Part shown: positions 14,294 through 63,806 of the stretch, one piece after another
Numbering within the stretch: position 1 is the stretch's first letter
Layout: each line of letters opens with the position of its first letter
Assembly: GCA_963969365.1 (NCBI GenBank)
Contig: OZ017747.1
Location: 3,906,001-3,970,000, forward strand
Origin: Asterochloris sp. CNOR1
Taxonomy: Eukaryota > Chlorophyta > Trebouxiophyceae > Trebouxiales > Trebouxiaceae
DNA: 64,000 nucleotides
Direction of reading: 5' to 3'
Notes under the pieces: generated by a model
Told to the model about the DNA's origin: nothing
Databases searched by the model: none
The model's input: the letters and a program-made list of their open reading frames with translations, nothing else
Translations under genes and position numbers: made by a program

Positions 14294-16438
14294 TCAAAAG
14301 GAGGCAAAGGCCTTCTTTCCTGCGGAGCCTGCTGGGATGACGCGCAGTACATTGAACCTCACAGTCTTGGACAGTGGTCTGCAGCAAGAAGTGCACAAGA
14401 GTGCTTGGCACATTGCTGAGATGCTCGTTCCCCGCAGCATCACAGGTAAACGCTGATGAACAGGCAGTGCAGGCATTGGCAGCAAGAAGACATGGTGTGC
14501 CAATCAGACAGGTGACTGCCAGAAGTACATCAGACATCTGCATGTGTGTGGTGCAGTCAGCAGCACCAGCACCAGGCTTGCTGCACTGTCACCCACCTGC
14601 ACTGGCCCACAATGACTGTGTCTCCCTCTGCCACACGGAAGCAGGGCGACACGTGCACTGCAACATTTGTATGCCGCTTCTCATACCTGCAGCAGAGGGC
14701 ACAAGGCTGAGGCCCACCTGTGACAAAAGCAGCCACCAGGCCCAGGAATTCAGCCACCGACAACAGCCCCAGAAGGGCCTTTTGGGCTTGGCAGTGCCAA
14801 AGTCTAACGGTGCACCTCTACCTTTGCTAGCCATTGCCGCTCAAAACTTGCAGCAGCCGTGCAAGTCTTGGCTGTGCAAGTGAAGCAGCCACCAGGCTCA
14901 AGTGTGCAGTAAAATCCCCTGCGCCCACCAGAGCAGCTCTGCAGCCACCTGATGGTCATGTGTCCATAAGGTGGCTGTCCAAGTAGAGCAGCCATGCAGC
15001 TCAGCTACCAGAGCCTCTTGACTTTCTAGTGACTGTGCAGCACTCCTACTCTGGCCTGAAAGCTTCACGGCAGAGGTGCCATTGCCCTGTGGCTGCCTCA
15101 TGCCGCAGTCAGCTCTGCAGCCCTTCCATGTGCTGCTGGGAGGCTGCATGTGCTGTCTGATGCCCATTGTGGTTGGGACGCTGCTCGCTCTCCAATCACA
15201 CTTGTTGATGAAGTGCACATGCCCCAGAGGATGACAGTTGTGCCCCACACACCGTCAATGTCGCCGCAAGGCTGGAGCGGCAGCAGTTTCGCTAATTATG
15301 GCCTGTGGCAATTGAGAGCTGATGCCGCCACCAGCCAGCTGCGCTCGTGAGCTACAGCATCTCAAGCCTGCGGCCAATCGGTGGTGCTCACCGCGCATAC
15401 TTCTTGATGTAGTGCACATAGTTCCTGCGGATGATGATCGTCCTGTGCATCTTTGTGGACCGGACCAGCCCTGACAAGATGCGGCCGCGGATGGACACGT
15501 CGCCTGTGAAGGGGCACTTCTTGTCGATGTAGGTGCCTGCAGGAAAACAGACAGCAGCATGGAGACACTGCCTGTAAAGGGGCGCTTGCAATGTAGGTAC
15601 CTGCAGGGAACTAGACAGAGCACAGCAGCCAGCACAGAGACTGCCAGGCTGTGCCTGCCCTGAGCCTGCACGGTGTCTGTAGCACTCTGCAGGAGGGCCA
15701 GGCAGGCAGGCAGCTGGCTGGTCCCTACCAGCCTGGCTTGCAGGACCAGATGCAGGCTGGAATGCGGCAAAGGCTGCGCCTCGGCATAGACTGCGCCTGC
15801 AGCCGTGCCATGCCATATAGGCAGGCACCACCAGCGCGTCTGTGCCTGCTGGCCGCCTGGCGCATATAGGCCAGGCCTGCGTTGCGCCTCTGCATTGCCA
15901 GCCTCCAGCTGATCATTCACCAACCCTTTCCACCAAGGGGCCAGGCTCAGCCTAGCCGCTGTGCATCAGGCGGGCCTCAGCCCAGCGCGTCGTGTGCTTC
16001 CTTTAGACCAATCAGCTGTCCCGCTGCAGGAAGGCTTCAGCTGGCTCACCCTCAATGGCCTCCTTGGGGGTCTTGAAGCCCAAACCGACATTCTTCCAGT
16101 ACCGCTGACCAGCCTTTCCAGGTGTCTTCTTCTGTCCCACCTTCTTAAAGCTGCAGACAGAGGCACCAGATGTTCAAAAAGCTGCACAGATCGGCATTGC
16201 CTCAAGCATGCTGCCTCTTTGACATCATGGCCATGTAGGAGGCTGCTGCTTACCCAACATTCACTCCAAGCTGCTTCTGAAAGGCCTTCTCGCCCTGCAG
16301 GGCATGCAAGGAAGGTTGTTGCAGGAATTGTTCAACCTCACCTGGTTGACAGCCATGTCGAGCCTTCCAGACAGTACTGTGGCCACAGCATGGCATACAA
16401 CTGCAGGCAAGGCTTCAAACACGCACCTGCTCCGCCAT
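14294..16438 (-). CDS. RPS11: 40S ribosomal protein uS17 (RPS11)
   Basis: Cytosolic small-subunit ribosomal protein uS17. Six exons (16438-16427, 16294-16254, 16150-16050, 15536-15392, 14686-14597, 14378-14294) give 157 residues, the family's usual length. The first exon is only 12 bases (MAEQ). Conserved blocks: [91 protein letters not shown], and [16 protein letters not shown]. Directly upstream of exon 4 the intron carries a decayed copy of that exon's first bases with its acceptor (separate entry). The gene diverges from Cpn20 across 172 bases, a likely bidirectional promoter for two highly expressed genes. Confidence 0.97.
15537..15600 (-). repeat. Exon-head echo upstream of uS17 exon 4
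   Basis: On the minus strand CTGCAG|GTACCTACATTG... precedes by 64 bases the true CTGCAG|GCACCTACATCG.... About 45 bases align with small indels, including CCCCTTtACAGGC and GTGTCcCAT-like positions. The copy is frame-broken. The unit runs exactly from one acceptor to the next. Confidence 0.85.
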
Positions 16439-16610
16439 GACTGCTTCTGCTCGGTAACCTCTGGCCGCAGTGCCTGGTGCAGATCAAGCTGATCAGCCTG
16501 TGCAACTGCAACCAGAACGCTGCCTGGCAAAAAGCTGGAGGCTGCTAGGTTAGGCAACTTTCTTTCTACAGTCCCGGCCGCAGCAAGAGATATACACAGG
16601 CAATCTCAAC
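16439..16610. promoter_or_regulatory. Putative bidirectional promoter, uS17 / Cpn20
   Basis: Only 172 bases separate two divergent start codons of strongly expressed housekeeping genes, so both promoters must lie here or within first exons and introns. Inferred from gene arrangement; no motif is claimed. Confidence 0.4.
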
Positions 16611-18184
16611 ATGCAGGTCAGCATGACCTCCATGCACTCACATCAGGCCAGGCTGCAGGCTGGGGCTGGATTCTCAGGCCGCAGGCTGAACACCCCCCGG
16701 GCAGCCCCAGCAGTCTCGGGCAGGCAGCGATCCCGCATCACAGCCTTTACAACTGTGCCATCTGAGGTAAGGACTGTTCCTTGTGTTGCCATCTGTGCAT
16801 TGATGCATGAGCAGCTGACCTTGCTCTGCTCCTGGACCCCATGGCAGAGGCCACAGTGCCTGTTCAATCAAATGCTCACCCCCACTCTCTGCAGTACAAG
16901 AATGTGGCCCCCGTGGGTGACCGTGTGCTGGTGAAGGTGGACTCAGAGGAGCAGAAGACTTCATCTGGCCTGCTGCTGCCCACTTCAGCTCAGAAAAAGC
17001 CAACCCAGGGAGAGATCATTGGTGCCGGAACTGCAAAGGCAGTGAAGGTGGGCAGGCCGCTGCTTCCAGAGTATTCTACTGCTGCCAGCTCGAACTTTTG
17101 TGTGACAGAATACGACTGGCCAACCTTACATTGCACCTGGTCTTCAGCATATGTGTGCACTTGCTGTTGCTTTGCATAGGACCTTCATGCCTGCCACCCA
17201 GAAGAGAACCTACCGAGCCTGAATGCCCTGCAGAACGGCGACCGTGTGGTGTACTCCAAGTTTGCTGGCACAGAGTTGAAGGTCCAGGATGATGACCTGG
17301 TCCTCCTCAAGGTGGGCTGCTGCTCACAAGATGCTGTCTGTATGCTGCTCACAACACAAACCCTCTGGACTGCAGTAGCCCTCCCTTGCCCAGTCCATGA
17401 GCTGGCTGTCCTGGAGCCTGCTGCTCACTTGCTGGTGGCGCACAGTGTTGTGCATGGAGCAGCACATTGGTTTTGTCCTTCTGGTGCCCCCCATGCTGCA
17501 CTTTCAGGTGGTGGTCTGCCTGCAGGAGGACGACGTGATTGGTGTGCTGAGCTCCAAAGACATCAGCCAGCTTAAGCCCCTGGGCGACAGGATACTCATC
17601 CAGGCACGTGCAGACATTCACCCGAGCCCCCATCTGTACAGCATCAAAAGCTTGTCGGGCATGTCTGAGGGCACCTGCATGATGCTGCTGCGCTTGAAAG
17701 GCCCCCTGCACCGCCAACCACCATCCAGTCCACTTGGGCAACATCTGTTGTGGCGACCCTGCTACTGTGTGCAGGTGGCTGACGCAGGCGACACCAGCGA
17801 GGGCGGCATATTGCTTACCACAGGCAGCAAGGAGCAGCCAACACTGGGCAAGGTGCGAGCTTGCACGCAGCTTCCTCTGCCCTGGCACATCCAGAGTGTC
17901 CTTGCACTGCACTGACCTTTCACAGCATGATGTAGCCCAAGCTTGTCCTGCCTTGTTTTGAGTCTGTGCAGCTTGCTCCCCTGCCACACATATGGCAACC
18001 TTACCTGCAGGTGGTGGCTGTGGGCAGTGGCAAGGGCGATGAGAAGGGTAACATTGTGAAGCCCAACGTGGAGGTCAACAGCACAGTCATGTATTCAAAA
18101 TATGCTGGCGCTGAATTTGAGGGTGATGATGACACACAGTACATCGTGGTCAGGGAGTCAGACATCTTGGCAACCCTTGCCTGA
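16611..18184 (+). CDS. CPN20: Chloroplast 20 kDa co-chaperonin (double Cpn10 domain)
   Basis: Plastid co-chaperonin that caps the Cpn60 cage during protein folding (for example Rubisco). Six exons: 16611-16766, 16895-17047, 17180-17311, 17526-17603, 17775-17852, 18011-18184, 256 residues. Residues 1 to about 50 form a Ser/Arg/Ala-rich transit peptide. Two tandem Cpn10 domains follow. Domain 1 has VAPVGDRVLVKVD, SSGLLLPTSAQKKPTQG and GDRVVYSKFAGTELK. Domain 2 has LKPLGDRILIQ, SEGGILLTTGSKEQPTLGK and STVMYSKYAGAEFEG. The intron after 17603 is GC-AG (CAG|GCACGT). A GT four bases later would break the frame. The start could alternatively be the ATG at 16623. The acceptor of exon 3 (CATAG) is the least certain junction. 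Confidence 0.95.
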
Positions 18185-18481
18185 GCATTGCTACTGCTCT
18201 TTCACCTGCTGGCCCCTGCCCTCCCCTTTTTTTGCTGATTTTATGCACGGCTAACAAGTTCAGGCTGACTGGTGTCAGGTTTACTAGTAAAGACATACCA
18301 ATGAATGGCTTCATTCACTGTCACCGCAAGGCACACTGGCCTTGCGCGAGGCGCTCTCCGTGCTCACGCAAATGCTCTATCATTGTGGCAACAGCTGCTA
18401 CTCGCGACTGGAAACCTTAACTGGGGCTCAGCTGGCATGCACTCCCTCAGTCCGTCAGAAACTCTAGGCCCTGGCTGCCTG

Positions 18482-21400
18482 TTACATGATGGACTGCACA
18501 GAGCTGGCGTTGTAGACCCTCCAGATAGTCTCACCCAGAAGGTTTGCAACAGACAGGACCGTCAGCTCTGAGAAGTGCCTGTCAGGGTGCGCAGGGATTG
18601 TGTTGGTCACAATCACCTGCAGGGCAAAGTGAGATTGTCGCTGCTGGCACTAAATGCTGCTGCTGGCACGCGTTGACAAATAACCACCCCAACCATTGCT
18701 CACGCCCTCAGGCAACCCATGGTGTCAGGAGGTTTGTTTCACAGCGCGAAATATATAGCAAAAGGGGCTGCACTGCGCTTCATAGAGGCAAGCATGTAGG
18801 GGCTTGAGGAAAGCAAGCTGGCGAGAGTGGTGCAGGAGACGCCCACCTCCTGGAACACGCCGCTGCTGAGCCGCTCAGTCGCTGGTGGACTGAATACTGC
18901 GTGCGTGGCGCAGGCGTACACCTCTCTGGCGCCGTGCGTGTGCAGGACCTGCAGGCGGTGTGAGGCAAAGCTGATGCTGGGTCCACAGCAGAAGTGAAGA
19001 CATAATATCAGAGATTCGTGTGTTCTTGCCTATGGTACCACCAGCAAGTGTCTGCAGGGAGCAGGTGTGCAGGAACCTGCAAGCACAGCATTGTTGGCTG
19101 CCGCTGGGTGCGCAGGCTGCCACTGGGACCACAGACGGCAGGCAGTGCCTGTACAGAAGCTGCAAGCAGAGCGAGGCAAGGGCCACAGAAGGCAGGAAGT
19201 GCTGGTGTGTAGAAAACTGCAAGCACAGCAATGCTGGCTGCCACGGGGAGTGCAGCAGGCAGGCACCGAGGGCAGGCAGGTCTGCAGGCAGAGCTCTTCT
19301 GCCCACCACCAGCATGAGATGCCCTGCAGACAGGGCCCTGCAGCTTGCTGCCGGACAGACACGGTGCAGGGTGCTGGTCCTGCTGGCATCTTGCGGCCTG
19401 CTGCCACATACTGGATGTGCAGAAGCAAGCTGCTAGCTGCCAGCAGCACACTCCATGGGCAGCTCTTGTCCCCAGAAGCCAGGCTGGGTCACCTTGGCTG
19501 CATTAGTAATGGTGCCTGCGGTGTCAATCATGTCGTCCACCAGCACTGCCACCTTGCCCCTCACATCGCCGATGAGGTTCATGACCTCAGACACATTGTG
19601 GGCTGACCGGCGCTTGTCCACGATAGCCAAGGGGGCATCGTTGAGCTGCACGGCAGGACACCCAAGAGGTCAGACACAGCAATTCCATCAAGGCGCGTAG
19701 GGCACCACTAGCAGCTGCTGTAGCAGGCTGGGCAGTAGCTTGGTGGTGGCCACCTGACTCTGCCAGGCAGTAGGAGTGAGACCACCATGCTAAGCAGCCT
19801 GCTGCCAGCTGGCATGACCACCTGCTATATATGCACGCCTGCAACTGCTGCCGTGGAGGCTTCTCTCACACAGCAGGCTGTGTGCTCTGATAGCAAGTGT
19901 GTCTAGCCAGCGCCCTGGCCAGAAGTAGCCCCCAGCATCAGCACCACCTGTGTGAAAGATCCTGCCCTCAACCCGCACATGCAGCACAAAAGTCCTGGCC
20001 TAACCCTTTGGGAGACGCCCTCCAAGTACATTCGTTGGCATCACTACCACGAGGGGGCGGCATCCTGCAATTTGCACACGTACTCAAGCCCTGGCCTCAC
20101 CTTTTTTGCAAAAGCCCGCGCCCTGGCCACGCCCCCAACATCAGGCGACACCACCACCAGGTCTCCTGTTGTGATGCGCTTGGACGCCAGGTAGTCCAGG
20201 ATGACAGAGTCCCCATACACATGGTCCACAGGTATGTCAAAATAGCCCACGCACTGCCCCGAGTGCAGATCCATGGCCAGCACCCGATTGGCGCCTGCAG
20301 CAAAGCGAGTGGATTGGTCCAGCAGAGGCAAAGTGCAGGTCAGCCGGTGCCTGAGTCATGCAGGTGCGTGACCAGCACAGCGTTAGTGCCTGCTGCAAAG
20401 GGATGTGATAAGTTATGATAGTGAAGATGGGTAAAGAGCCACACGTGCATGAGACTGGCTGCCTGCATGTGTGCAAAGTCCAATGTTGCCCCTGCTTCTG
20501 TTGGCAGGTCGGAAGCTGAACCCCCACACCACAGCAGGCCACAGCTGCCTGCAAGCCTCCCAGAGCAGGCCACTGCCACCAACACATTACTGAGCCAAGC
20601 ACAACCACAGCTGTCCCGGCCCTGCCCTTTGTTGCGACCCACCAGCTTCTGTGAGCAGGTTGGCCGTCAGCTTGGCCGCGATGGACTCGCGCCCCTGCGT
20701 CTTGCGGTCTGCCCGAGCGTACCCAAAGTAGGGCATGACTGCAGTGATGGAGCGCGCCGATGCTCGCTTGCAGGCATCGATCATGACCATCAGCTCCATC
20801 AGGCTGTCATTCACGGGCGGGCAGCTGGGCTGGATGAGGAACACGTCGCAGCCGCGAATTGACTCCTGGAGGGGGCAGTGCAGCGCTTGATATGTGGACA
20901 AAGGTGACAAGCTATTGAAAGAAACAGTACAGCCACAAATCAATGCCTGCGGGCACTGGAAAGTGTGCAGAAGCATGTGCAGACCTGTACAGGGTGAAGC
21001 AGCTGTGCTGCTGGAGGACTCGTTGCAATCATTGCTGAGTGAGTAAGGCTGCTAGCCAGTGAGCAACCCCTAAGACGCAGCAGGCCACGTACAGATGCAA
21101 CTGCAATAGGAGAAGTCCCAAGGCAGGCCTGAGCAACAGAAGGTCTCCCAAGGCAGGCCTTCTGCAGAGGCCCCTGCAGCACAAGTTCACAGCAGGCAGG
21201 GCGTGCAGACGATGCTACAGTCTTGACTTGTCTCGGGACAGCCCCTGCACTACACGAGTGTGCCAGCGCAAACGGGTGCCTGTACAGATGCTCCTGGCAG
21301 TTGTCAGCTGCTAATTAGCCGATGCGGCGCACCTGGACCTGGACATAGATCTCGCCGTCTGCAAAGCGCTTGATCTTGATGCCGCCCAGATCTAGGCCCA

Positions 21401-22299: not shown

Positions 22300-25023
22300 A
22301 TGATGCTTGGCAGAAGGATTGCCATGGCTGTCTTTAGCTCAGTGGAAATGTCTGCTGCGCCCACCAACCATGCTGCCCCATCCAATGGAGGCGGATTCCA
22401 AACCAGAGCAGATGCCATGTTTGCAGCTCTGGATGCAGCAAAGCCAGGGCAGCAGGACAGCAACATCTCTTGGCAGCTAAGCAAGACCCAAGTCTTCAGG
22501 TGAGCATGCCAGGTGTCTGCATGCACCCAGCTGACACATAGCTCCCTGAGCGCACACGCTGCCTGGCAGACTCATGAGCTTGCCCAGCTTGCTCTGGTGT
22601 GTGCTGCAGGCCAGGCAAGGAGGCTGGGGACAGCAGCGATGACGAGGCACCTGCCCCCACAGCAGAGGCGGGCTTGCAGGAGTACCTGCCTGGCAGCCTG
22701 GTGGACCTGGAGGGGACTGACATTGTGGCAGAGGATGGCACCATCATGCAGCCCAGCGCAGCCTTCTGCCGGTGAGTGGATGCGACTGGCCTGATGTCAC
22801 CTTGAGGCGTCGGGATCTGCTTCATTTCAACTTAGCTGGTTGGACTGGTGCATGCTATGCTGTGCTGTCTGTCATGAGCTTGTTGAGTCATGTAGCCCTG
22901 TTCCGAGTATGGCAGTGACATAGAAAGAGCACAGCATGCAGGCAGGATGCTGCATCGCTGCCTTCACTCAGCCTGTCAGGGCCACACTTGGCTGGCTGCC
23001 GCTCAGCAGCTGGCACTCTGCATTCATGAGGCAGCCGAGCATGCAGGCAGGCTGACTCACTTGGTGAGGGCAGCTTCATCCGTCTGCAGGGCGCTGGATG
23101 ACGAGGGAGAGTATGATGCAGCTGATGCACTGGCTGGGCAGACGCTGCACACTGCAGGCAGCGTTGACCTCAAGCCCCACAGGCAGACAGAGGTGGGGCA
23201 GTTTGTTGGCCTCATTCCATGTCAGTGGCCCTTCTGTGGTGCCAGTGCTCCTCTTCTACCTGCACCAGGCCTCAAACTGTGTGCAGGTGCCCTGTTGGAC
23301 CTTTGGCACCCTCACTGTCAAAGGCTGCATGTGGTGGGGCACTCTGCTGCAGTTGAATGGGCAACACGAATTTACCGCTGCCCTCTTGAGAGTCATGTCT
23401 GCCGACGTTCAAGGGCAGAGAGCGCAGTCCAACGAACAGGCTTCCAGCTCGCAACAACTTGCCCTGCAGGTCCTTGACGACAATATCTGGGAGCAGAGGG
23501 CGCAGTCCCACCAACAGGCTTCCAGCTCACGGCCCGACCTGCCTGCTGACATGGAGACAGATGCAGTGCTGCCAGCTCCTCGATCCCAGCAGCCACAGCG
23601 AACTCTTGAGGCAGCGCACTCCCAGCAGCTGCTGAGTGCACCTGCAGAGTTTGTTTCAGGGCGCATCATGGAGGCACCTAGTGATAGGCGGGCTGTGGCA
23701 CCTGCAGAGCAACCCAGCAAGCGGGCGCGGTTCAGCGCTCCCACGCAGCGGTCGCCCAGGTGGGACAGGGCTGTCTGCGTGAGTTGGTCCTCCTCAAGCG
23801 GGCGCTCAGCAGCTGCCAACAAACGCCTTAGTGCAGCCGCGGCATGGCGAGACGTTGTGTGTGTTGTCTCCCTCTCACAGCCTACTGTACTCCCACAGCC
23901 TACCGGGGGCAGCCGCCGCGGGGGCAGGCAGGAGACGCCGCTCTTGCGAGCCTTCTGAATGCATGCTGCTGTGGTGTGCTGTCCAATGCACAGCAGCCAG
24001 CCTGGCTTCTTGGTGCTGCACTGCATTGAGGTGCCAGTAGATGCCCACGCCATGCTGTGCGCTGCTTGCTGCCCTCAGACGCATGATCATCAGGGCAGGC
24101 GTGGGTGTAGGGCTGGTCACCTCAAGGTGGCAGCAGTTGTAGACTCTTTATGGCACTGCTTGTGCAGGCCTTCCAAGGTGCCTGACCATGTGAAGAACCC
24201 GTCCAGGTACACCTGCTATGTGCTGGACGAGCCCATCACTGTCGGCAGCGGTGACAGGCAGACAGGCGTCGAGCAGGCCGAGCTCGAGCAGGTCAGCCCG
24301 GTGGCTCTCATCTCTGTTGCTGCTGGCATGCACCAGGAGGTGATGCTGGATGGCGGGCGCTGTGCCATCAAGGCTCCGAGCAGTGCTTCAGGACCCCAGC
24401 TGCAGCCTAGTTTCAGTACAGCCAGGCTTGATGTGCCATGCAACCCTGAGGCTCAGGGCAACACTGCAAGTCCCAGCCGCTGCCTCAATGTATTGCAGAT
24501 AAACTCACATGCTGTCTGGCCTACCCCCTGCAGCCTTGTTTCAGTACAGCCAGACTTAGGCTCAGGGAAATACTTCAAGTCCCCAGCCGCCGCCTCAATG
24601 TGGTGCAGGTGGACTGACATGCTGTCTGGCCTGCCCCCTGCAGGCCGCCAGGAGCGCCATGTCGGCAGCCCAGGCGCAGCAGCAGGCTCAGATGGCTGCT
24701 GACGAGTCTGCCCTCGAGGTGCCCGCGTTTGGGGAGGGCATCGAGTTCCGGCCCAGGGCAAAGCCGCGCTCCAGCGAGCAGCACAGCCGGCAGCCAGGCA
24801 GCACACCTCTGTCCACCACCACTGCTGAGGATGACAGTTTGGAGGCTGAGGTGAGAGCTTGGGCTCCCCTGGCAGACTTCTACGGCAGGCAAATCTCATC
24901 TCTGCAGTTCTGATTTCTCAGGTTTTTTGGCTTCTGTTGCAGGGTGAGAGCCCTATTGCAAAAACTGCAGCCCCACCCAGGAGGCGCCAGATGAGAGTTC
25001 GCGTCACTTCAGAAGAGGTCTGA
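22300..25023 (+). CDS. TSSC4-like protein (candidate U5 snRNP assembly factor)
   Basis: Seven exons (22300-22499, 22610-22771, 23090-23192, 23287-23759, 24168-24291, 24644-24850, 24943-25023) close in phase to 449 residues. Mostly low-complexity: acidic N-terminal part (DSSDDEAPAPT), Gln/Ser-rich centre with a duplicated segment, and a basic C-terminus (PPRRRQMRVRV). The only conserved-looking block is SKVPDHVKNPSRYTCYVLDE, which resembles the VPD-V-x-P-x-(K/R)(W/Y)T-Y-L signature of TSSC4, a chaperone of U5/tri-snRNP assembly in animals. The assignment rests on that motif alone. The first codon could be either ATG at 22300/22303 or the later MSAAPT. Head-to-head with PRPP synthetase; tail-to-tail with eIF2-alpha. 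Confidence 0.5.
23415..23535 (+). repeat. In-frame coding duplication in the TSSC4-like gene
   Basis: QRAQSNEQASSSQQ is repeated about 78 bases later as QRAQSHQQASSSRP, both inside the long fourth exon. At DNA level the shared core is GCGCAGTCCnACnAACAGG followed by CTTCCAGCTC. Confidence 0.85.
24406..24643 (+). repeat. Acceptor-to-acceptor tandem duplication in TSSC4-like intron 5
   Basis: Two units (24406-24533 and 24534-24643) start after CTGCAG with CCTnGTTTCAGTACAGCCAG and end in ATGCTGTCTGGCCTnCC followed by CCCTGCAG. The second unit's end is the acceptor of the functional exon 6. The shared middle includes CCAGCCGCnGCCTCAATGT. Confidence 0.9.
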
Positions 25024-49201: not shown

Positions 49202-49768
49202 GCTGGGGCCGCTCCTGATTAACACTGAGCAAGCGATCGCAGCTGGTCAAGATCTTATCCTTGGCTTCTAAGAAAGAGAGTAACCACAACATTCTAAAGT
49301 GTTAGCAGACTTCAGGCTCCAATGGAGTGGCTGAGGAGCTCAATATTTCGTGTGGGCTTGAACATGTTGCTGGAGGATCTTATGTCACTGGGCCAACTCA
49401 CATGCAAGAAGGGCCCAGATAAGGATGCTGTTGTCTACTGGGCCAGCTGCCGCCGGTGTATTACTCTATGTCTGCACACAGCTTGACTTGCTCTCACTGG
49501 CCAAGTGGACTTTACAAAACAGGGCATTGAATCAGTGCTCTGCTGAGCTGACCTCAGGGGGTGTATCCACCTGATCAGGGCGCCCTTGCTTAGAAGCCAG
49601 AGCTGGGTTGCTGACAGACAGTTTAACTGGATGTTTCAGCATACCCAGCAGGCTCATGTGTCTGAGATACAATGCACACAACAGGGCTGTCGCATGTCAG
49701 ACGAGACTGGCACGTCACAGGACAGCAGCTCAATGTGGGAGGACGAGACATGCAGGTCCCCCGACACT
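49202..49768. other. Intergenic gap between CP26 start and RAD21 stop
   Basis: Expected to hold the CP26 promoter on the minus strand. No coding exon, repeat or recognisable motif. Confidence 0.45.
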
Positions 49769-52700: not shown

Positions 52701-55188
52701 CACTTGTCTTTTTTGCACAGTGATGTCAAAAGTGCACAGACAGGTGGCCAGCCAGACAGCAGCTCTGCCTGAAGGGTGAAGATTGGCGCCCTGCAGGTTT
52801 CATGTGAAAGATTGGCGCCCTGCAGGTATCAATGTCACACCAGTCTGCCTACGACCACTACTGCATCAGATGGCACACCCCAATGTCTGCAGCTATCAAT
52901 ACCGAGTGCACAAAGTGAGTGCTGTGCAAACTGGCAGCCACAGGTAGCTGCAACGCTTGCTGATAACCCTGTCTCAACAGAAGTATGGCAGAGACTGCCA
53001 GCCAAGCTGATGCAAGCTGGGGATGTAGGGGACCTGTGGCAGCAGGGGCTCGTCAAGATGTGGTGGCCAGGCTTGACCATGAATACAGTCAGCAGGAACA
53101 CAACACCTCCAGTGCTGCCCTGTTTGACAGCTGGATCTGTGGTGGCACTGGCAGCCAAGCTCGGATCCGTCGCAGGGGGCCCAGCTTGACTGTCATTGCC
53201 AACTCTAAAAGGCACTTCCTCAAGTCAGGTATGTCATAAAGCTATGATGGGACACTGAGTGCCCAGCTGCGCACCCGAGGCTGTCGCCAGGTGTGGGCAG
53301 GCTGCCCAAGTCAAGACCCCCACTGCTGATGGGCAGGCCCAGGCTCTCGCGGGCGGCAAACACGTCTGAGGGCGGGCGCCGCGGGACGCTGCCGGGCCCC
53401 TCCAGCAACTCAGCAGGCATTGGAGCCATGCGCTCGTCCTCCTCTCCATCATAAGCCACATCCCCACCACCACTGCCTGCGGAGGACACACGCAGAGGCG
53501 TTGTGCTGGGGACGGCGTGGGCAAGGCCTGCTGCCGGGGCGGTAGGGCTGCACTGCGCTGAGAAGGACGAGTTATAAAAGAGCAGTAGCCTCTACCATGG
53601 CTGCTAGGCAGACGATCAGTTCCCCATGGCCACTGCAATGGACTGAAGCTGTGGCTTGTTTGAGGCTGCCCTTCTGGGAGCAGCTCTGGAGCATCACGCA
53701 GGCTGTTCAACCCATTTGAGTATGCTGCTGCAGTGAACCCACCAGCATAGAGTGAGTCATAGTCAAGCCCCAGGCCAAGGCTGTTGCGACCTGCCGCTGC
53801 GGCGGCGTCCCCTGAGGGAGCAGCCCTCAGCTTCTCAGGCGTCCCCAGGCTCAGGTGCCGCTCAAAGTCCTCCCCACCAATCTCAAACTGCTCTTCTGCA
53901 GCAGCATGAGCAGAAACTGATGATGGGAAAACTAGTGAAGGGGAGCCAGTGCACAACTTGGCTGCTGCACTAGGCTGTGGGCCCTTACAGGTGGAGACAG
54001 GAACGCATTGGCTGACAACAGCCTGCCAGCCAACGATTGCCTCTGCTGCAGGTGTGCAGGATGCTGGGGCAGACGGCTACCATGGCAGCAAGTCAGAGAT
54101 GTCCTTCGAGATGACCCGCCGCCATTGTGGCAGGCTGCCTCACATGCGGCTGCGCAGGCAGGTGCTCTGGCCACCCACCCTCAAACTCCTGGCTGTGCAG
54201 AGCTGCCCAGTCATCAGCCAGCAGGAATGAGTCGCGCCCCTCCAACCTGAAAGCGGGGGCTGGGGCCCCTGGGTCGAATGAGCTGCAGCAGCGGCAAGAT
54301 CCATCAGCACACTGCTTGTTGAATCAGCTGGGTTGAGCTGAAGTTGCCAACAGTGTCCTGTGCAGGCAGACACCAGCTGCAAGCTTGCAGCTGCAATATC
54401 TGTACAATAGGCTGTATGGCCAGATTGTGATGCCTGATGACCAGCAATGCTCTCACGCCTCATGCTAGGCCACGGCTTAGAGCCTCACTCTAAACTGAAG
54501 CGCTCAGTGCCCAGCAGCTCCAGTTCCTCAAACTCGAGAATTTCTGGGAGCGTGATCATCTGCTCTGGCGCCTGGGTGTTGCCTTCTGGCAGGTCAACGT
54601 CATGGGCCTTGAAAGCCTGCGGCAGACAGGGCATGCGCACAGATTGCACGTCACTGGGTTGGTGATTTCTCCTGCCTGCTAACAGCAGTCAGCTGTGCGC
54701 AGCAAAGGTGCCTGTTGCGTGGCAGGACTTCTTGACCAGATAAAGCTGCAGCCCACTTAGGGCAGATGTGCCCGCTCTGGTTGGCAGCCTTGAAATTGGG
54801 ATGCTGACCTGCTTGAGCCTGACCACAGCCTCATTGCAGTCGTTGTACAGAAAGACAACTTTGCGCGCGTGGATGCGCACAACGCCCAACAGCAGCTGCC
54901 CTGACAGGCGGAGTGCCAGGGGAGCCTCAGAGTTTATGATATTGTCTGCAAACCCAGCAGAGCATGTCTTGGCACAGGCAAGGGGCGCACTTGAAAATGG
55001 CAACAGCGCAGGACGCAAGCCTCTCTCAACGAGAGCACCTCACAACAATGCAGAGCTGCCTCACCAACAGAGTTAGAGATGCTGGTGTCAATGATTTGGG
55101 CCTTCTTCAGCCGCTTGTCCATGTGCCCAGCCAGCCATACTGTGGCCAGCGGGCCCTTCTTGGACAGCAACTGGGTTGAAAAGAACAT
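49769..55188 (-). CDS. RAD21: RAD21/SCC1 cohesin kleisin subunit
   Basis: Alpha-kleisin that closes the SMC1-SMC3 cohesin ring. Thirteen exons: 55188-55065, 54945-54809, 54616-54489, 54282-54179, 53895-53596, 53476-53275, 52682-52570, 52385-52240, 51990-51633, 51056-50991, 50727-50582, 50358-50113, 49933-49769, 744 residues. N-terminal kleisin domain: MFFSTQLLSKKGPLATVWLA, KRLKKAQIIDTSI, APLALRLSGQLLLGVVRIHA. Middle part acidic and variable (FEIGGEDFERHLSLGTPE). C-terminal winged helix: RTKKVLAHLHSSF, DGIVAGKSRLDASRWFFEML, LKTRDYVDLEQQQPFGDITI. Exon 8 might instead stop at 52279. The intron after 50113 is GC-AG (CAG|GCAAGC). Echo repeats occupy two introns. Head-to-head with POLD2. Confidence 0.93.
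51040..51260 (-). repeat. Tandem echoes of RAD21 exon 10 head, unit about 90-100 bp
   Basis: Functional junction (minus): CCCTTGCAG|GCCCCATGCTCAAGGGCG at 51056. Echo 1 near 51248: TTGCAC|GCCCCATGCTCAAGGGCG, where the AG has been lost. Echo 2 near 51159: CCTCAAGGGCGCTGG. Between them ATGCCnTACTGAGCTAGCT is repeated three times together with CACTGAGTCTGGG-like sequence. Confidence 0.88.
52783..52825 (-). repeat. Two echoes of RAD21 exon 7 head
   Basis: Functional junction (minus): ACCTGCAG|GGCGCCAACGCC at 52682. Echoes ACCTGCAG|GGCGCCAATCTTC (head 52790) and ACCTGCAG|GGCGCCAATCTTTC (head 52819) lie upstream in the same intron. Confidence 0.85.
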
Positions 55189-55502: not shown

Positions 55503-58500
55503 ATGGAGGTGGATGCTCAGATGGAGATCCCTGGCGCTTCGTGAGAGCAGTTCCTTCGTTTGAGAGCAGCACTGGTCCACAGAGTAGCAGTGATGCAATG
55601 TGCTGCTCTCACAGACATGCTTGACATTCGCTCTCTGCTGCAGCGGGAAGTATGATGAGCTTCTATCCCACCCTGGCACATGCAAGCCCCAGCAGCTTAA
55701 GCGTGTCTCTGCATCTTACCGGAACGAGGTGCGGCCTGTAAGCTTTGGATGTCAAGGCCTTCCATGCCCATGTTTGCACAGTCACATGGAACGATTACTG
55801 TGCCTGCAGGGCGAGAGATTCAAGCTGAATCACAGGGTGTACGACAGGCAGTATGCTCAGATCTACTTCCAGCGGCTTATGATGCTCAAGCCCAAGTTGC
55901 TGCAGCAGGTCAAAAAGCTCTGGCCTGGTGTGGCAGGTGATGCTCTGGTCTGTCTGGTCCACTCTGGGGCAGCAGATGGCCCATTGCTGATGGCGCGTGT
56001 TGCTGATGCTGCACTGCAGTCATCACTGCTTGAAGGCAGCCCGCTGAGCTGCTGCCAAGACCGTCAGACTGGGCCAGCCACCTGGGCAGAGGCAATATTC
56101 TTGCAAGAGGCAGCCTTCATGGGTGTCACAGGCACTCACCTGTCTGCGCTGCAGTGTGTGGCATCCTGAACCTGCCAGAGAACGACGATGTTGCAGTGCT
56201 TGGCACTGTATATAAGGACATGAAGCTGAAGCCTAGCATCCTGGACGAATATGTTAAGGTGAGCAGAGATGAGGCTTATGCATCCACGTGCACGTGAGTG
56301 CTGTGGCCTGCAGGACACACTGCAGGTGCAGTCCTCCGGCGTGGTGGCTGCACTTGGGGCTTTCACAGCTGCTAGTGACTGTGCATTTGAAGCAGAGGCC
56401 GGGCAGGCGTTTAGGCTGCCCCTCGGACCAATTGTCCCTGGACCAAGGCACACCGCAGGCGCAGTGCTGAGCTGAGGTGCATTTTCTACTCGATGACCTG
56501 CAGGGTCAGCTGCCGCTCTGATGCAGCAGGGGCACCCGGCCAGCAGGCTCATTGCTTCTCTGGCGTGCCATGCAGGACAGCGCAGCTGCCCAGCCAGTGG
56601 GTGTTGCGCAGTATCCATTGGGGCCTGATCAGCTGGGTCCACCATCCCCTGCTTGTGTTACAGGAGCCCCAGCCAGTGGGTGCTGCTTAGTATCCATTGA
56701 GGCCTGATCAGCTGGGTCTGCCATCCCATGCTTGCCTTGCAGGACAGGGGCGCAGCCCAGCTGGTGGGACACGCCAAGTTTGTGGGGGCAGACGACGCCC
56801 TCATCCTGGAGGATGAGTCTGCCCGCATGAGCCTGCGCGGGGACAAACTGCCTGTGGGGGACCTGGTGACCGGTGTGGTGATGGCCGTCAGGGGGGCAGC
56901 TGTCCCTGGCGGGGACTTCATTGTCAGGGTGCGCGGCCAGGTCAATCACCCCAGATGTGCTTTTTGGCATTGGCGGAGGACATAGGACTGTTCAGGAACT
57001 TCACCATTGCCTGCGTTCTGCAGATGCAGGTGCGTCTGTGCTGCATGAGCCTTGAGCACCTCAGTTCACAGGCAGTGGGTTGAAGGTTAAGGCGTCGCCC
57101 AAGCAAACTTTGAAGAACCCACAGATGGGCTGCTGAAGGATGCTGCTGTCAGGTGGCACAGACTGAAGAGAGCCGGGCTTCATTTGCATGCACTGACCAC
57201 GTGAACACCAGACTGCCTTTGCAGGCGCTGATGCCCTATCTATCAGGCTCTGCAGGGGTGTTGACAATGTCCCAGCTCGGTCTCACGACTGCGACCTTGC
57301 ACCCTCCCCTGCAGGCATGGGATACTGTCCTGTTGCCACAGGCAGTCAGGCCATTGTTGTGAGTGTGATGTCGGCACCTGTGACCTCCCCTGCGGGAGTC
57401 CTGCTTTCACGGCCTGCCATCCCAGCTGTCGGGGCCACACCTGCCTGCCTGCACCTCGCTGCAGGCGTGGTGCTGTGTGGGCCTGCCGTCTCAGCCGCCC
57501 TGGCCTCTGCCGTCAACAGGCAACATCAGCACGCTTGGCTTCCTGCACCTCCCTGTCGGCGCATGCTGTTAAGTGCACTGTGTCCACCCACTTTCCCTGC
57601 ACCCTCCTTCAGGAGTGGTGCTTTGTGGGGCTCCCCTCCCAGCCGCCCAGGCCGTCCCTGTCGGAGGACAAGTACATCGCCTTTGTCAGCGGCCTGGAGG
57701 TGGGCAACGATGCAGCTGACCCCCTGAGGCTGTCGCTGGTGGTGGACTACCTCACTGGGCTGCTGGGCAGTGGCGAGGAGCAGAAACTGATTGCCAAGGT
57801 GGGGGCTGGTAGCGAGCACGATCGTGAGTTCACATACCACAGTTGGCATTGTAGCATTGCTTGCTGTTGGATCAGCACAGCACTTTTACAGACTGTGAAG
57901 ATGGCCGTAGTTGGATTGGCCCGTTGCTATGTGATCTCCTGCTTGCCCAGACAGGCACAAGTGGTTCTGAGCAGCAGCCGGCCAGGCAGCATCCTCGGTT
58001 TGAGTGTGTGTTTTGCACAGTCTGTTCTGCTAAATGCTGCCCGTGGCAGACTCACAGAAAGGTCACTGGCTGCATGCAGATTGCCAGGGTGGTCATTGCA
58101 GGCGGCCTGCTGCAGAGCACCGAAAGCCTCTCCCAGGCCACCACGCACAGCAAGCAGAAGCAGCAGGCGGCAGCCCTCGCGCCCGTCAAGTGAGCTGGGC
58201 AGGGCATGCAGCTACCTGCCTGGTCTGTGTGGCCTGCTGCACCTTCGTGCAGTGTCATGCAGAAAGCGTTGTTTTTATCGGTTTTGTGAGGCACCCTGCC
58301 ATGCGCTTTCTTGCACCATCACGTGCCCTGCCCCTTCTGAGCATTCGCATGGCCTGCAAGTCCTTGAGTATGCGAGGCTGAGCCAGCCAGCACTTGTGGC
58401 ACCTGATGCATGCCTGGCATCTGTCCTGCAGGGAGGTGGACCTCTGCATGACTGAGCTGGCCTCAGCCATTCCCGTTGATATGATGCCGGGGCAGACGGA

Positions 58501-60000
58501 CCCCGCCAATCAGTCCCTCCCGCAGCAGGCCATGCACGCCTGCCTCCTGCCGGGCGCATGCCAGTTCTCCACCCTGAACAGGCAAGCGCTGCGCTGCGCT
58601 GCACACCTGTGGCAGACCTGAGCTGCAGCCTCAGCGGCCTCCCAGCATCTGCATGCGCGCTGGTGGCCGCCACCAGTCTGCAACGAGAGCAGCAGCTCCA
58701 CTCGAGCAGCAGGGGGCTGCACAACAAGCTTCCATGGCCGCCCTGACGAGCTGGGCAGGCGTCATGCATGCAGAGCATCCTGTCAGTCGATCTTTTGGGC
58801 TGGTGCTGCATGTGGGTGCTCCTGCCTCACAACCCCCTTGCCCTCTGCGACAAGGGCATCTTTGTCATTGGCACCACAGTGCACACCTTGCACTGTCCCC
58901 AACCCCCTGCATTCAGCATGGACGCCTGCACTCTGTGGGCGTCCCTCCGTGCTCTCTCACAGGTCAGTGGAGCCAGCATCTTACGCAACATGTTGGCTCG
59001 TGCTATACAGAGTGACCAACCCCCACGCCTTCAGCGTAGACGGCGTGCACTTTGTGGGCACCTCGGGGCAGAATGTGGACGACATCCACCGCTACAGTGC
59101 CATGGAGGACAGGCTGGCCATCATGCAAAGCGTGCTGCAGTGGGGCCACCTGGTGCCCACCGCACCTGACACTCTGACGTGCTACCCCTTCCAGCAGGAC
59201 GACCCATTCATTCTGGAGCAGGTGGGGCTGGTTGTGCAGGGACTGCATGCATCTGTGTCTCTACTGCGTATGTTGAGACCTGAGCAGGGACCTGGCAGTG
59301 TCCAGGGCAGCTGGCTTGGTTGTCTGTAAGACAGCCTGTTATGCCCGGGAGTTCTGCAGGCTGGAGCCATCCTGCAGAAAGAGGTGGGGCCTGACCTGCA
59401 ATGTTGATGGCTGCAAAACATTGATGCTATCCAGAGGGCTGCAGCAGTGCTGCTGCACCTTCCAGCAGGTCACTTTTGCAAGATGAAGCTGGTGGGGTAC
59501 AGGGCTATGCTGTTAGGGCGGTTGCTGCTGCTGGTGGGCAGTGAAACTCTAAAAGTGAAAAGGTGTGTTGGCAGCCATGGCAAGCCAGCTGCATGCTCCA
59601 GCTGTGCACCACTGCTTTTTGCAAGACCCCTGCGCAGGATGGCTGCGTGACCTGCGAACACGCTCATGCTGCAATAAGCTTGAGAGCTGCCTGCAATGTG
59701 CTGTGCAGGCGCCTCATGTATTCTATGTGGGCAACCAGCCCGAGTTTAGTGCCAAGATTTTTAAGGGTGGGCACTGTCTATGATGACTGCTTGTACACCG
59801 CACTGGTGGCCTTCACAGCCCCTCGACCAGTGTGTTTTGAAGGAGGCTTGAGCGCCGGTGAAATCTCCTCTGCAGGCAATGCTGGCCAGAGTGTCCTCCT
59901 CATCAGTGTGCCAAGGTTTGCAGACTCTGGCATCCTGGTGCTGTTGAATGTTAGAACGCTTGCAGTACAGCCACTCCAGTTTGATAGTCAGTTGAATTGA
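55503..60000 (+). CDS. POLD2: DNA polymerase delta small (regulatory) subunit
   Basis: B-subunit of the lagging-strand polymerase: OB fold followed by an inactivated phosphoesterase domain. Eleven exons: 55503-55540, 55644-55728, 55810-55936, 56155-56258, 56743-56928, 57613-57798, 58080-58189, 58432-58581, 59011-59221, 59709-59766, 59876-60000; 459 residues, close to animal POLD2. Landmarks: YDRQYAQIYFQRLMMLKP, AVLGTVYKDMKLKPSILDEY, FVGADDALILEDESAR, YIAFVSGLEVGNDAADPLRL, VVIAGGLLQSTE, PVDMMPGQTDPANQSLPQQ, VTNPHAFSVDGVHFVGTSGQ, HLVPTAPDTLTCYPF and HVFYVGNQPEFSAKI. The first exon is 38 bases. The intron after 58581 is GC-AG (CAG|GCAAGC). Introns before exons 5, 6 and 9 carry exon-head echoes. 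Confidence 0.96.
56576..56742 (+). repeat. Tandem acceptor plus exon-head echoes before POLD2 exon 5
   Basis: Junctions: ATGCAG|GACAGCGCAGCTGCCC (56576), TTACAG|GAGCCCCAGCCAGTGGG (56664) and the functional TTGCAG|GACAGGGGCGCAGCCC (56743). The intervening CAGCCAGTGGGTGnTGCnnAG, TATCCATTGnGGCCTGATCA and GCTGGGTCnnCCATCCC are nearly identical between the two copies. Units 88 and 79 bases. Confidence 0.93.
57393..57612 (+). repeat. Two exon-head echoes before POLD2 exon 6
   Basis: Functional head: CTTCAG|GAGTGGTGCTTTGTGG then CTCCCAGCCGCCCAGGCC. Echo 1: TGCGG|GAGTCCTGCTTTCACGG then ATCCCAGCTGTCGGGGCC (57396). Echo 2: GCTGCAG|GCGTGGTGCTGTGTGGG then GTCTCAGCCGCCCTGGCC (57465). Spacings 69 and 148 bases; echo 2 aligns over about 50 bases. 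Confidence 0.93.
58829..58950 (+). repeat. Two exon-head echoes before POLD2 exon 9
   Basis: Functional exon has CCAACCCCCACGCCTTCAGC then GTAGACGGCGTGCACTTTGTG. Echo at 58897: CCAACCCCCTGCATTCAGC then ATGGACGCCTGCACTCTGTG. A further echo at 58829 translates as NPLALCDKGIFVIGTTV against the functional NPHAFSVDGVHFVGTSG. The copies lie upstream of the functional acceptor in the same GC-AG intron. Confidence 0.85.
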
Positions 60001-60828: not shown

Positions 60829-63672
60829 TCATCTCTGACGTGGATCTCTCCGCAAGGGGGCATAGGGGTTGCTGTATGCTGGGTCCGCTCTGAGGTTGCC
60901 ATGGGGCGGCCCATACCCGCCTGCTGAGGGAGCTCCATACCCAGGGGTCGGTGCATGGTTGGGTGGGTAGTGCGAGGGGGCCTGATGGTACTGCAGGGGT
61001 GCACCCCCGCCATACGAGCCAAACCCTTGCACGCCAGGTGCAGGTGCACCGTACTGGGGCGCGGCCCAGGGCGGCTGCTGGTGGGGGGCAGGCTGGTACG
61101 GCGCTGCTGCCGGGTTCAGGCCCAGGCCGACAGGAGGCCCCCTGCCCCCTGTGTGGGGCGGCCCATAGCCCCCGCCGCCGCGGGGGTCACGACCAGAGCC
61201 ACGAGGATCTTGCCTGTCCACAGGGCCGCTGTGGTCGTCGGCCCGGGGGCCACGGAAGCGCGTCCCTGGGGGAGGCTCAAAGCGGCCGCCGGGCATCCCT
61301 GGATAGAAGGAGCCTGCGCCGTAGGCCTGCAGGCACATGAAGCAAGTATCAAGCCTGGCGGGTGCTGCACAGTGCCCGGAGATGCGTGACACACAGCATG
61401 GAGCAGGGTTCAGCACCCTGCAGGGTTGTGCCCTAAAACGTCACAGACCCGGGGATGCGCAGCAATACTGCTGTGCTTGCTTGCATGCGGTGCAAGCACA
61501 AGAGCAGGGCAGGAACAGTGACTGCCGCTGGTCAAGAGGCACCAGGCAGTCTAAGGCTGTTGTGCTGAGCTTTCAGGGCCTGCCACAGATGCCAGGCACC
61601 TGCTGCAGGTGAGGAGGGGGGCCCCCTCGGCCATAAGGGTCGCCTCCCCTGTGGTAGGGCTCCTGCTGCTGGCTGGGGTGCATGTCCACCCCCATGCTGC
61701 GCATGCTGTGTTTGAGCATGCGGTGGGCTCCAGGCGCCAACATCTGCAGGGGGGCAGGAGGAGTTGTCAGCCAATGTGTGTCCAGGCTGAGGTGTGAAGC
61801 CTCATTGTAAAGCCGAGCAGGGTGGCGCATGGGATGACAGAATCACAGGCCTGAGCAGCTCCTGGCTGCGCCCGCACATGTGTGGCCCACAGCACACTCC
61901 CACACAGCGAAAGCGGCAGGCTGGCCCCTGCAGCCTGACGGACAGGCAACATGTCACTTGCTCACAAGTGCAGGCAGTAACACCTGCTAAGCATACAGAA
62001 TGTGGCGGGCAGCCCTCCATCTGGAAGCTGGGGCCCAGCAGGCGGACAAGTGTGGCACCAGTATGCATCAGGCAGCCCCAGCAGGGACCCCCACAAGCCC
62101 ACTGGCACCCCAAAAAGAAAGCTATGTGTGGCTCTGTAACGTGTCCTGGGGCCGGTGTCTTATAAGCAGACACTCACATGTGGTGCCATTCCTCGCCCCG
62201 CACCGCCCCCGCCACGCCCGCCTCGACCTCCGTAGCCTCCCCGCGGCCCGTCCTCATGCCACAAGCCCTGAGGCGGCGCCACATCCGACTCCTTCACCTG
62301 GGGTGGGCCCAGCTTGGTGCCGGGCATGATGATGGGGTGGTGAGCCAGGTGGGGCTCCGGCAACCTGCACAGAGCAGAGCGTGATGTGCACAGTCCTGGC
62401 AAGTGGTGTGTGTGGCGTCAAGGTGATGGGCCAGATGGGGCTCAGGCGCACAAGGAGTGCAGCAAGTCTCTTAGCACTGAGCGTCGACGAGGATTGTGGC
62501 CCTCTCAGGAGTGATGACACTCGATGAATCCAGGCCAGGTGCAAGAAACAGAATCTTATGCCATGCCAGAGGCGCTTACAAGTCACCAGCAAAAGAGTAG
62601 TGCATCGACAACATGGGGTTTCTGACCGCATGTGCTCGTGAGACAGGCAGTGGAGAGGTGCAGGAGAGGCAGAGGGTAGGTGCAGGGCAAGAGAGCAATG
62701 GGCGTTCAGCAGCAAACAGCAGGACAGGGCTGGCACAGGAGGCAAACCTGTAACAGGCGCAGCAGACACCGTTGCTGGTGATGTCATCACCCAAGCCCAG
62801 GGGCGCCGGAACGACTGTGGGGCAGACCTCGCCAGCAGGCATCAGCATGAGACCATTCATGCCGCCTGCATTGCAGCAGGCCGACTACTAGCTCAGCAGC
62901 CTGCCAGCCATGGCCCCCACGACTTGATTGATGAGCAGCGCAAGACACTCTCCCGCACAGGACACCAGGGGCTGGCAGGCGCTGGCAGGGCGACTGATTA
63001 GCCTAGAGCACTTGATCGTGCAGGCATCTCAACTGTATCACAGACATGAAACATTGCTCAGCACACACATGCTATGTGGCCAGAAAGATGCTTGCATCGA
63101 GCAGCTGGCATCAGAGCCAGCCCCCATCCCTCCTCCCCTCTGAACCCTCTGCAGCAGTTAACTCTCACAAAGCCGACACACCCAGTTTGCCACTCACGCG
63201 TCAGCTCAGGGTTCATGGGCACTGTCTTGCGAGCGCGCTCAGCCGGGCTGAGACTGGCCAGCTCGTCAGCCATCTCAAAGATGTCGGGGGTCAGTGGGTG
63301 GGCGGAGGAGACATAGAACAGGTCCAGGCGGCGCCCGTTGCGGTGCGTCTCCTCCTCTGACAGCTGCTCCTCCAGGGGGCCCTACAGCAGGGGCAGCAGC
63401 AGTCTGGGCACTTGAGTCAATGCAGGGAGGGAGACCACAGTGGCCCAGCAGCAGCTGGTAGGGGTGGCCAGAACTTGGGCCTGGTGGTGCCGCAAAATGC
63501 CTCCCCTACAGTGCACCAAAACCCCGCTCACCGTGGCGTCCAGGAGGCGCCTCTCGTCGATGAAAGGCAGCAGCGCCACGCCCTGCCACGCAAAGCGCTT
63601 CCCGTTGATGTCCACAGCAAAGTGCTTGGGGTAGAAGTCGAGGACAGGGGAGTCCCACTCAGTGAACAGGGC
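60829..63672 (-). CDS. XRN: 5'-3' exoribonuclease of the XRN family, C-terminal part (5' end outside window)
   Basis: Processive 5'-3' RNA exonuclease (XRN2/XRN3/XRN4 class in plants) acting in RNA turnover and transcription termination. The last six exons are visible: 63672-63532, 63381-63198, 62865-62748, 62364-62178, 61743-61600 and 61326-60829. The conserved end of the catalytic region reads EWDSPVLDFYPKHFAVDING, KRFAWQGVALLPFIDERRL and LSEEETHRNGRRLDLFYV. After that comes a low-complexity tail of roughly 300 residues rich in Gly, Pro, Arg, Tyr and Gln (GYGGRGGRGGGGAGRG, repeated GYGPP/GYGAP). CCAC near the GDDITSNGVCCACYR segment may be a remnant zinc-knuckle-like element. I could not place the preceding exon reliably. 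The nuclear or cytoplasmic subtype is undecided. Confidence 0.9.
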
Positions 63673-63695
63673 CTGCAAGACAGAGAGGAGAAACC

Positions 63696-63806
63696 TTGAG
63701 GGCTGGACATCCACCGGAAGGATGGAGCAGTGTCCTGTGGGAAGAGGAAAATTGAGGGCTGGACATCCACTGGGAGAATGGAGCAGTGTACTGTGGGAAG
63801 AGGATG
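63696..63806 (-). repeat. 56-bp tandem duplication with acceptor-like site in the XRN-type intron
   Basis: Two units (63696-63751 and 63752-63806) share GAGGGCTGGACATCCAC, GGAGCAGTGTnCTGTGGG and AAGAGGA; a third, more decayed unit follows to about 63870. On the minus strand each has TCTTCCCACAG, a plausible 3' splice site, upstream of the functional TCTTGCAG. Confidence 0.88.

What the first reader, a model, noticed from the sequence alone, without database searches (positions are those of the whole stretch)
15537..63806. Recurrent 'exon echoes': introns contain serial decayed copies of the next exon's head with its TGCAG acceptor
Read directly: in uS17, PRPP synthetase (two introns), the TSSC4-like gene, eIF2-alpha, NDUFAF5-type, the SET gene (several introns), RAD21 (two introns), POLD2 (three introns) and the XRN-type gene, an intron carries one to three tandem copies of [3' splice site + first 20-60 bases of the downstream exon]. 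The functional exon is always the copy nearest the exon body, and the others are decayed. Units run acceptor to acceptor (29-150 bp). Copies are locus-specific, so they are not dispersed introners or transposons. Known precedent: tandem duplication of AG|GT segments can create introns, but there the copy pattern differs. Inference: a recurring local duplication process, perhaps slippage or microhomology repair at CTGCAGG, lengthens introns and creates decoy 3' splice sites. As a genome-wide habit I know of no description of it.
Basis: partly seen in the sequence, partly recalled or inferred. Interest (0 to 1): 0.85.

Follow-up and report, generated by a model that had tools for sequence, protein, structure and literature searches.

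The report
Introns lengthened by tandem duplications
Many introns of this alga carry decayed copies of the start or the end of the neighbouring exon; these look like leftovers of ordinary short tandem duplications that ran across exon-intron borders and lengthened the introns, and they give a readable record of how introns grow.

Summary
The echoes are real and occur beyond the window. I built gene models for 314 kb (window plus 250 kb from two other contigs) and tested introns against unrelated intron sequence of equal length. At p<=0.01, 52 of 681 introns carry a copy of the next exon's head and 49 of 681 a copy of the previous exon's tail; 6.8 are expected for each; inverted copies 5 and 10. 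So the acceptor focus is wrong; the window alone happens to favour heads (16 vs 7 of 139).

Strong repeats in 449 confident introns split 36 head, 32 tail, 68 internal; randomly placed tandem duplications predict 34.6, 34.6, 66.8. Repeat distances show no frame preference. Echoes rise from 2 of 123 introns under 120 bp to 31 of 86 over 450 bp. Orthologues confirm the copy next to the exon body in 4 of 4 genes checked.

Best reading: ordinary local tandem duplication, recognisable longest where one copy is frozen as exon. The process is known; this fossil record of intron growth was not found in my searches. Young echoes are too few for a steady rate, hinting at a past burst.

The parts
15559..15610 (-). 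head echo with acceptor, uS17 intron 15537-16049 (source exon 15392-15536); unit about 63 bp
   Evidence: score 43, p=0.005; used exon confirmed by uS17 orthologue
15197..15234 (-). tail echo (donor not included) of uS17 exon 15392-15536 in intron 14687-15391
   Evidence: score 35, p=0.005
20359..20400 (-). head echo with acceptor, PRPP synthetase intron 20295-20642 (source exon 20101-20294)
   Evidence: score 30, p=0.005
19905..19948 (-). tail echo of PRPP synthetase exon 20101-20294 in intron 19646-20100
   Evidence: score 37, p=0.005
19065..19084 (-). weak head echo, PRPP synthetase intron 18949-19492 (11 exon bases only)
   Evidence: score 27, p=0.005
23415..23450 (+). 78-bp in-frame repeat upstream of predicted exon 23470-23759 (TSSC4-like per reader); may be coding, not an echo
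   Evidence: no Pfam match for this protein
25654..25689 (-). tail echo with donor of eIF2-alpha exon 25910-26149 in intron 25433-25909
   Evidence: score 37, p=0.005
26202..26227 (-). head echo of eIF2-alpha exon 25910-26149 in intron 26150-26512
   Evidence: score 27, p=0.005
27516..27553 (-). head echo with acceptor of eIF2-alpha exon 27216-27407 in intron 27408-27707
   Evidence: score 37, p=0.005
33827..33842 (+). short, weak head echo in the NDUFAF5-type methyltransferase gene, intron 33560-33946
   Evidence: score 27, p=0.005; Pfam Methyltransf_11
51223..51260 (-). head echo of RAD21 exon 50991-51056 in intron 51057-51632; repeat distance 192, further partial copies between
   Evidence: score 56, p=0.005
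52812..52830 (-). one of several copies of the acceptor region of RAD21 exon 52570-52682 in intron 52683-53274
   Evidence: score 33, p=0.005
56566..56601 (+). head echo with acceptor in the POLD2 intron before exon 56743-56940 (the small predicted exon 56314-56343 upstream is probably false: its residues have no match in the orthologue)
   Evidence: score 37, p=0.005
56589..56744 (+). 79-bp tandem repeat in the same intron, running to the start of POLD2 exon 56743
57454..57505 (+). head echo with acceptor in POLD2 intron 56941-57612 (source exon 57613-57798); repeat distance 148
   Evidence: score 56, p=0.005; used exon confirmed against DNA polymerase delta subunit 2
58899..58940 (+). head echo of POLD2 exon 59011-59221 (my model breaks the gene here with a spurious start exon 58768-58802)
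   Evidence: score 42, p=0.005; used exon confirmed against DNA polymerase delta subunit 2
62422..62447 (-). head echo of XRN exon 62178-62364 in intron 62365-62747
   Evidence: score 32, p=0.005
63696..63804 (-). 56-bp tandem repeat just upstream (in transcript sense) of predicted XRN exon 63532-63672; no exon copy established

Best explanation
The echoes are fossils of ordinary local tandem duplications (units mostly 25-250 bp) that fell at random along genes. A duplication inside an intron leaves an intronic repeat. One across an acceptor leaves a copy of acceptor plus exon head upstream of the real one. One across a donor leaves a copy of exon tail plus donor downstream of the real one. 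A junction-spanning duplication can stay without changing the protein if the outermost splice sites are used, so the intron grows by one unit and the inner copy decays freely. Because one copy stays frozen as exon, these duplications remain recognisable for long. Shown: excess over chance, donor-acceptor symmetry, direct orientation, short distances, similarity of the intronic part of the unit, lack of frame preference, loose decay of the echo, rise of echo frequency with intron length. Inferred: that the outermost sites are used in living cells (protein orthology, no RNA data), and that break repair or slippage makes the duplications.
For: Heads 52 and tails 49 of 681 introns at p<=0.01 against 6.8 expected, inverted 5 and 10. 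Exon-only test, score>=28: heads 14, tails 23 of 449 against 0.7 each with unrelated introns and 0 with reversed introns. Split of strong repeats 36/32/68 against 34.6/34.6/66.8 for random placement, similar for three margins. Distance below half the intron length in 48 of 53 junction repeats in introns of 300 bp or more. Intronic side of the unit more alike than random (head 0.608 vs 0.564, n=18, p=0.007; tail 0.626 vs 0.551, n=15, p=7e-5). Distances mod 3 flat for heads (12/11/13) and tails (9/10/13), while exon-exon repeats near introns are multiples of 3 in 6 of 7 (19 of 30 in the wider scan). Echo-exon mismatches by codon position 17.2, 14.8 and 23.1%. Echo frequency 2/123, 11/152, 17/186, 32/134, 31/86 with rising intron length. 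A whole-sequence scan finds 234 local repeats against 15 in simulated sequence, also between intergenic stretches (9 in 25.9 kb). The PF20 chain of entry 7n61 lacks the 57 residues that two echoes would add; a DDX6-type helicase and uS17 run across the echo-bearing junctions without a gap, POLD2 across 56941-57612 with four unmatched residues at the predicted donor and across the junction before 59011 without a gap, in a query I had joined by hand.
Against: Gene models are my own ab initio predictions without RNA data; some exons and junctions are wrong, and echoes can be taken for exons. The random-placement model ignores that intron-internal repeats decay in both copies, so the close match is partly luck; in the 57-120 bp class heads (19) exceed expectation (13.1), and above 260 bp intron-internal repeats (7) exceed 1.0. 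In the wider scan 11 of 30 exon-exon repeats are not multiples of three, so the frame contrast is softer than 6 of 7. The age distribution does not fit a steady process: 5 of 56 exon-intron repeats have a 35-bp stretch of 90% identity or more, while a simulation at constant rate gives about 54%.
Confidence: 0.85

Rival explanations
1. An acceptor-specific process (slippage or microhomology repair at CTGCAGG) copies the 3' splice site with the exon head.
For: The window alone shows 16 heads to 7 tails of 139 introns. Two clean young junction duplications, one at an acceptor and one at a donor, show CTGCA-containing microhomology of about 8-10 bases, read by eye.
Against: The rest of the sample shows 36 heads and 42 tails; window versus rest Fisher p=0.059. 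Intron-internal repeats are the largest class. TGCA is common in this genome.
Confidence: 0.06
2. The echoes are functional alternative or mutually exclusive exon parts, kept for splicing regulation.
For: Echo AG kept in 22 of 31 and echo GT in 14 of 20.
Against: Retention is about what free decay at 80% identity gives. Distances mod 3 are flat, codon positions 1 and 2 are not protected (17.2 and 14.8% against 23.1%), 0 of 96 alignment gaps are multiples of three (weak: the linear gap cost favours single-base gaps, and intronic parts are included), and in 4 of 4 genes checked the orthologue lacks echo residues.
Confidence: 0.05
3. Intron gain by tandem duplication of an exonic AGGT segment: the intron itself is the duplicate.
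For: Same kind of mutation; known in several lineages (passages of PMC3443670; PMC2891723).
Against: That mechanism puts the head copy at the 5' end of the intron and the tail copy at the 3' end. Here, in introns of 300 bp or more, the copy lies within half the intron length of its source in 48 of 53 cases, that is, heads near the 3' end and tails near the 5' end.
Confidence: 0.03
4. Chance similarity driven by the shared TGCAGG consensus and base composition.
For: The acceptor consensus is strong, CTGCAG|G, and a few weak hits have only 5-11 exon bases.
Against: Exon-only comparison without the splice site gives 14 and 23 of 449 against 0.7. Unrelated introns carry the same composition.
Confidence: 0.01

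Closest known systems
Short tandem duplications as the commonest short insertions (Messer and Arndt 2007 and Vaughn and Bennetzen 2014, both seen only as citations in PMC8355091)
   Same: Local direct tandem copies; proposed origin in error-prone repair of staggered breaks (passages of PMC8355091).
   Different: PMC8355091, as far as seen in passages, treats new duplications at breaks in cultured cells, not decayed junction-spanning copies in introns. The two cited papers were not held.
Intron gain by tandem genomic duplication (PMC3443670 and PMC2891723 in passages, PMC4974935 in a listing)
   Same: Tandem duplication of a segment with splice-site sequence, tolerated through splice-site choice.
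   Different: There a new intron is born inside an exon; here an existing intron is lengthened at either end.
Tandem exon duplication and mutually exclusive exons (PMC9013439 in passages, citing a 2002 survey)
   Same: Exon-like sequence found in introns next to the parent exon.
   Different: There exons are copied as units and many are used; here, in the cases I read closely, part of an exon is copied with its splice site and decays.
Introner elements (definition recalled)
   Same: Repeated sequence in introns with splice-site motifs.
   Different: Introners are dispersed families; 5 of 5 stretches here matched only themselves in the genome.

Membership tests
Short local tandem duplication | direct orientation, not inverted | tested here: met
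   52 and 49 direct vs 5 and 10 inverted of 681, 6.8 expected
Short local tandem duplication | copies adjacent: unit length equals repeat distance, both sides of the unit homologous | tested here: met
   9 of 68 head or tail repeats show homology over at least 85% of the unit; intronic side above random in the 18 and 15 testable cases as groups; the others are too decayed to show the whole unit
Short local tandem duplication | position independent of splice junctions | tested here: met
   36/32/68 vs 34.6/34.6/66.8 expected overall; deviations in single length classes; simplified model
Short local tandem duplication | breakpoints typical of end joining or slippage | tested here: inconclusive
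   10 clean young repeats, 6 with 3-10 bases of homology beyond the unit
Intron gain by tandem genomic duplication | head copy at the intron 5' end and tail copy at its 3' end | tested here: not met
   opposite arrangement in 48 of 53 junction repeats in introns of 300 bp or more
Introner or other mobile element | similar copies at unrelated loci | tested here: not met
   5 of 5 queries match only themselves
Mutually exclusive or alternative exons | copies keep frame and coding constraint | tested here: not met
Mutually exclusive or alternative exons | copies used in mRNA | not testable with these tools
   no RNA data

The most novel reading that the evidence does not exclude
In this lineage a past, now nearly finished burst of short tandem duplication rebuilt intron lengths across the genome. 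Exon echoes are its dated layer: each pairs a frozen exon copy with a freely decaying twin, so one genome suffices to read when, where and at which end introns grew. A variant of the same reading is that the copies were made by error-prone synthesis and were born diverged.
Probability: 0.3. Interest if true: 0.7.

Novelty: new variant of a known kind. Interest (0 to 1): 0.5.

Why it matters
How introns grow without mobile elements is usually inferred from species comparisons. Here one genome holds the trace: junction-spanning duplications keep one copy under selection, so growth at each end can be counted, aged and set against intron-internal events. It also gives natural test cases for splice-site choice: the spliceosome must pass over similar inner sites and use the outer pair, the longest possible intron. 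Gene prediction is affected too: in the PF20-like gene my predictor took two echoes for one exon.

Tried and rejected
First blastn-based scan: it gave the same symmetry but no distances below 60. Shorter distances did appear with my own gapped scan, so I treat that lower limit as a property of the program (recalled) and did not use those distances.

First gene-finder settings overpredicted tiny exons (1591 introns, median exon 46) and were replaced (73 gene models, 686 introns). Some models still merge neighbouring genes (for example 35913-55188 in the window, which holds at least the SET, PWWP-like, chlorophyll-binding-like and RAD21 genes; the two '-like' names are recalled) or split one (POLD2).

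Rows dropped: of 686 introns, 449 passed the confidence filter (both flanking exons score >=12 and >=45 bp); 681 had enough length. In one search only junction-covering events were scored for AG or GT (31 heads, 20 tails), and 18 and 15 had enough unit left for the intronic-side test. In one search only the best event per intron and end was used (31 and 29). In one search only repeats of at least 35 aligned bases were used.

A TGCAG slippage hotspot: two suggestive cases, no enrichment test made with 10 clean young repeats. A surplus of decoy acceptors: the opposite was found, sense TGCAGG 197 vs antisense 290 and AGGTG 183 vs 282; longer donor motifs showed no clear difference (GGTGAG 31 vs 41, AGGTGAG 9 vs 17, AGGTGGG 17 vs 15); strand composition bias was not ruled out as the cause. 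Comparison with related algae could not be done: states that this genome has no relatives in the collection. The species is not identified. Literature: ten searches; in the rows shown (searches listed only part of their hits) no title or abstract start describes junction-spanning duplications as intron growth. Papers were seen as listings or passages only.
Full report
What was tested. The window is part of contig 2 of an unnamed 56.4-Mb genome in 21 contigs. Chlorophyll-binding-like proteins (recalled, no call) and a PF20 flagellar protein fit a green alga. I added 200 kb of contig 1 and 50 kb of contig 5 and trained a simple gene finder on the data: 73 gene models, 686 introns, median 230 bp, acceptor consensus CTGCAG|G and a donor close to AG|GTGAGC.

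Is it more than chance? Yes. Using exon sequence only, so that the splice consensus cannot contribute, 14 of 449 confident introns contain a copy of part of the next exon's first 60 bases and 23 of 449 a copy of part of the previous exon's last 60 bases at score 28 or more; unrelated introns give 0.7 each and reversed introns none. With the splice site included and a separate null for each intron, 52 and 49 of 681 reach p<=0.01 where 6.8 are expected, and inverted copies reach 5 and 10.

The acceptor is not special. Heads and tails are equal over the whole sample. Among strong repeats in confident introns the split is 36 head, 32 tail and 68 internal; random placement of tandem duplications with the same unit lengths predicts 34.6, 34.6 and 66.8, and other margins give 32-36 for each end. 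It is not perfect in every length class: at 57-120 bp heads are 19 against 13, and above 260 bp internal repeats are 7 against 1.

It is tandem duplication. Copies are direct, close to their source (distance below half the intron length in 48 of 53 cases in introns of 300 bp or more), and the intronic part of the presumed unit is also more alike than random. Nine of 68 junction repeats show nearly the whole unit; the rest are too decayed. Clear cases outside the window are a 79-bp unit at 93% identity at the acceptor of an amidohydrolase-type exon on contig 1 (gene name recalled), and a PF20-like gene on contig 5 whose exon head is preceded by three serial copies, about 77 bp apart for the better ones, each with TGCAG. 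The PF20 chain of entry 7n61 (recalled as from Chlamydomonas) runs directly from the upstream exon into the last copy; the 57 residues that two echoes would add have no counterpart. Local repeats are also found between intergenic stretches (9 in 25.9 kb) and within exons (30 in 104 kb), against 111 within introns (184 kb).

How it stays harmless. Distances have no frame preference in heads or tails, while exon-exon repeats near introns do (6 of 7 multiples of three; 19 of 30 in the wider scan). Echoes differ from their exon at codon positions 1, 2 and 3 by 17, 15 and 23%: this fits an echo that drifts freely and an exon that adds mainly silent changes. Echo acceptors keep AG in 22 of 31 and echo donors keep GT in 14 of 20. 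Across introns, sense TGCAGG is rarer than antisense (197 vs 290), which suggests that decoys are removed rather than stored; a strand bias in composition could also play a part.

Effect on introns. Introns with an echo at either end make up 2 of 123 below 120 bp and 31 of 86 above 450 bp, 93 of 681 in all (about 14 expected by chance for two tests per intron).

Age. A simulation at constant rate (divergence 0-0.4) expects about 54% of repeats to hold a 35-bp stretch of 90% identity or better; 5 of 56 exon-intron, 9 of 57 intron-intron and 4 of 17 exon-exon repeats do. Loss of copies with time would make this worse, not better. A past burst or error-prone birth are the open readings. I have no relatives to test them.

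Verdict. The mutational process is known (short tandem duplications are called the commonest short insertions in the human genome in PMC8355091, passages). The application to intron growth, with exon-anchored fossils at both ends, was not found in the ten searches run, so I file it as a new variant of a known kind.

Noticed in passing
whole 314-kb sample: Young tandem duplications are scarce relative to old ones: a 35-bp stretch of 90% identity or more in 5 of 56 exon-intron, 9 of 57 intron-intron, 4 of 17 exon-exon and 1 of 8 other repeats, against about 54% in a constant-rate simulation.
   Followed up: partly
introns of the sample: Sense-strand TGCAGG (197 vs 290) and AGGTG (183 vs 282) are rarer inside introns than their complements, as if decoy splice sites were selected against; composition bias not ruled out.
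   Followed up: partly
C5 1,026,030-1,026,400 (L024:6030-6400), minus strand: PF20-like gene with three serial echoes of one exon head; two of them were taken for one exon by my gene finder.
   Followed up: yes
window 44491-44619: 30-bp repeat, 4.3 copies at 98% identity, inside a predicted intron: one of the few young arrays.
   Followed up: no
window 6059-6300: Cluster of short repeats (units of 22 to 73 bp) just downstream of the first gene model.
   Followed up: no
window 43199-43289: 18-bp repeat inside a predicted alanine-rich coding exon.
   Followed up: no
window 23415-23528: In-frame, stop-free 78-bp repeat at a predicted acceptor; may be a coding duplication or an alternative acceptor.
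   Followed up: partly
C1 1,129,777-1,129,836: Two near-identical donors 25 bp apart from a duplication between two ACTGCAGG stretches; which donor is used cannot be told.
   Followed up: no
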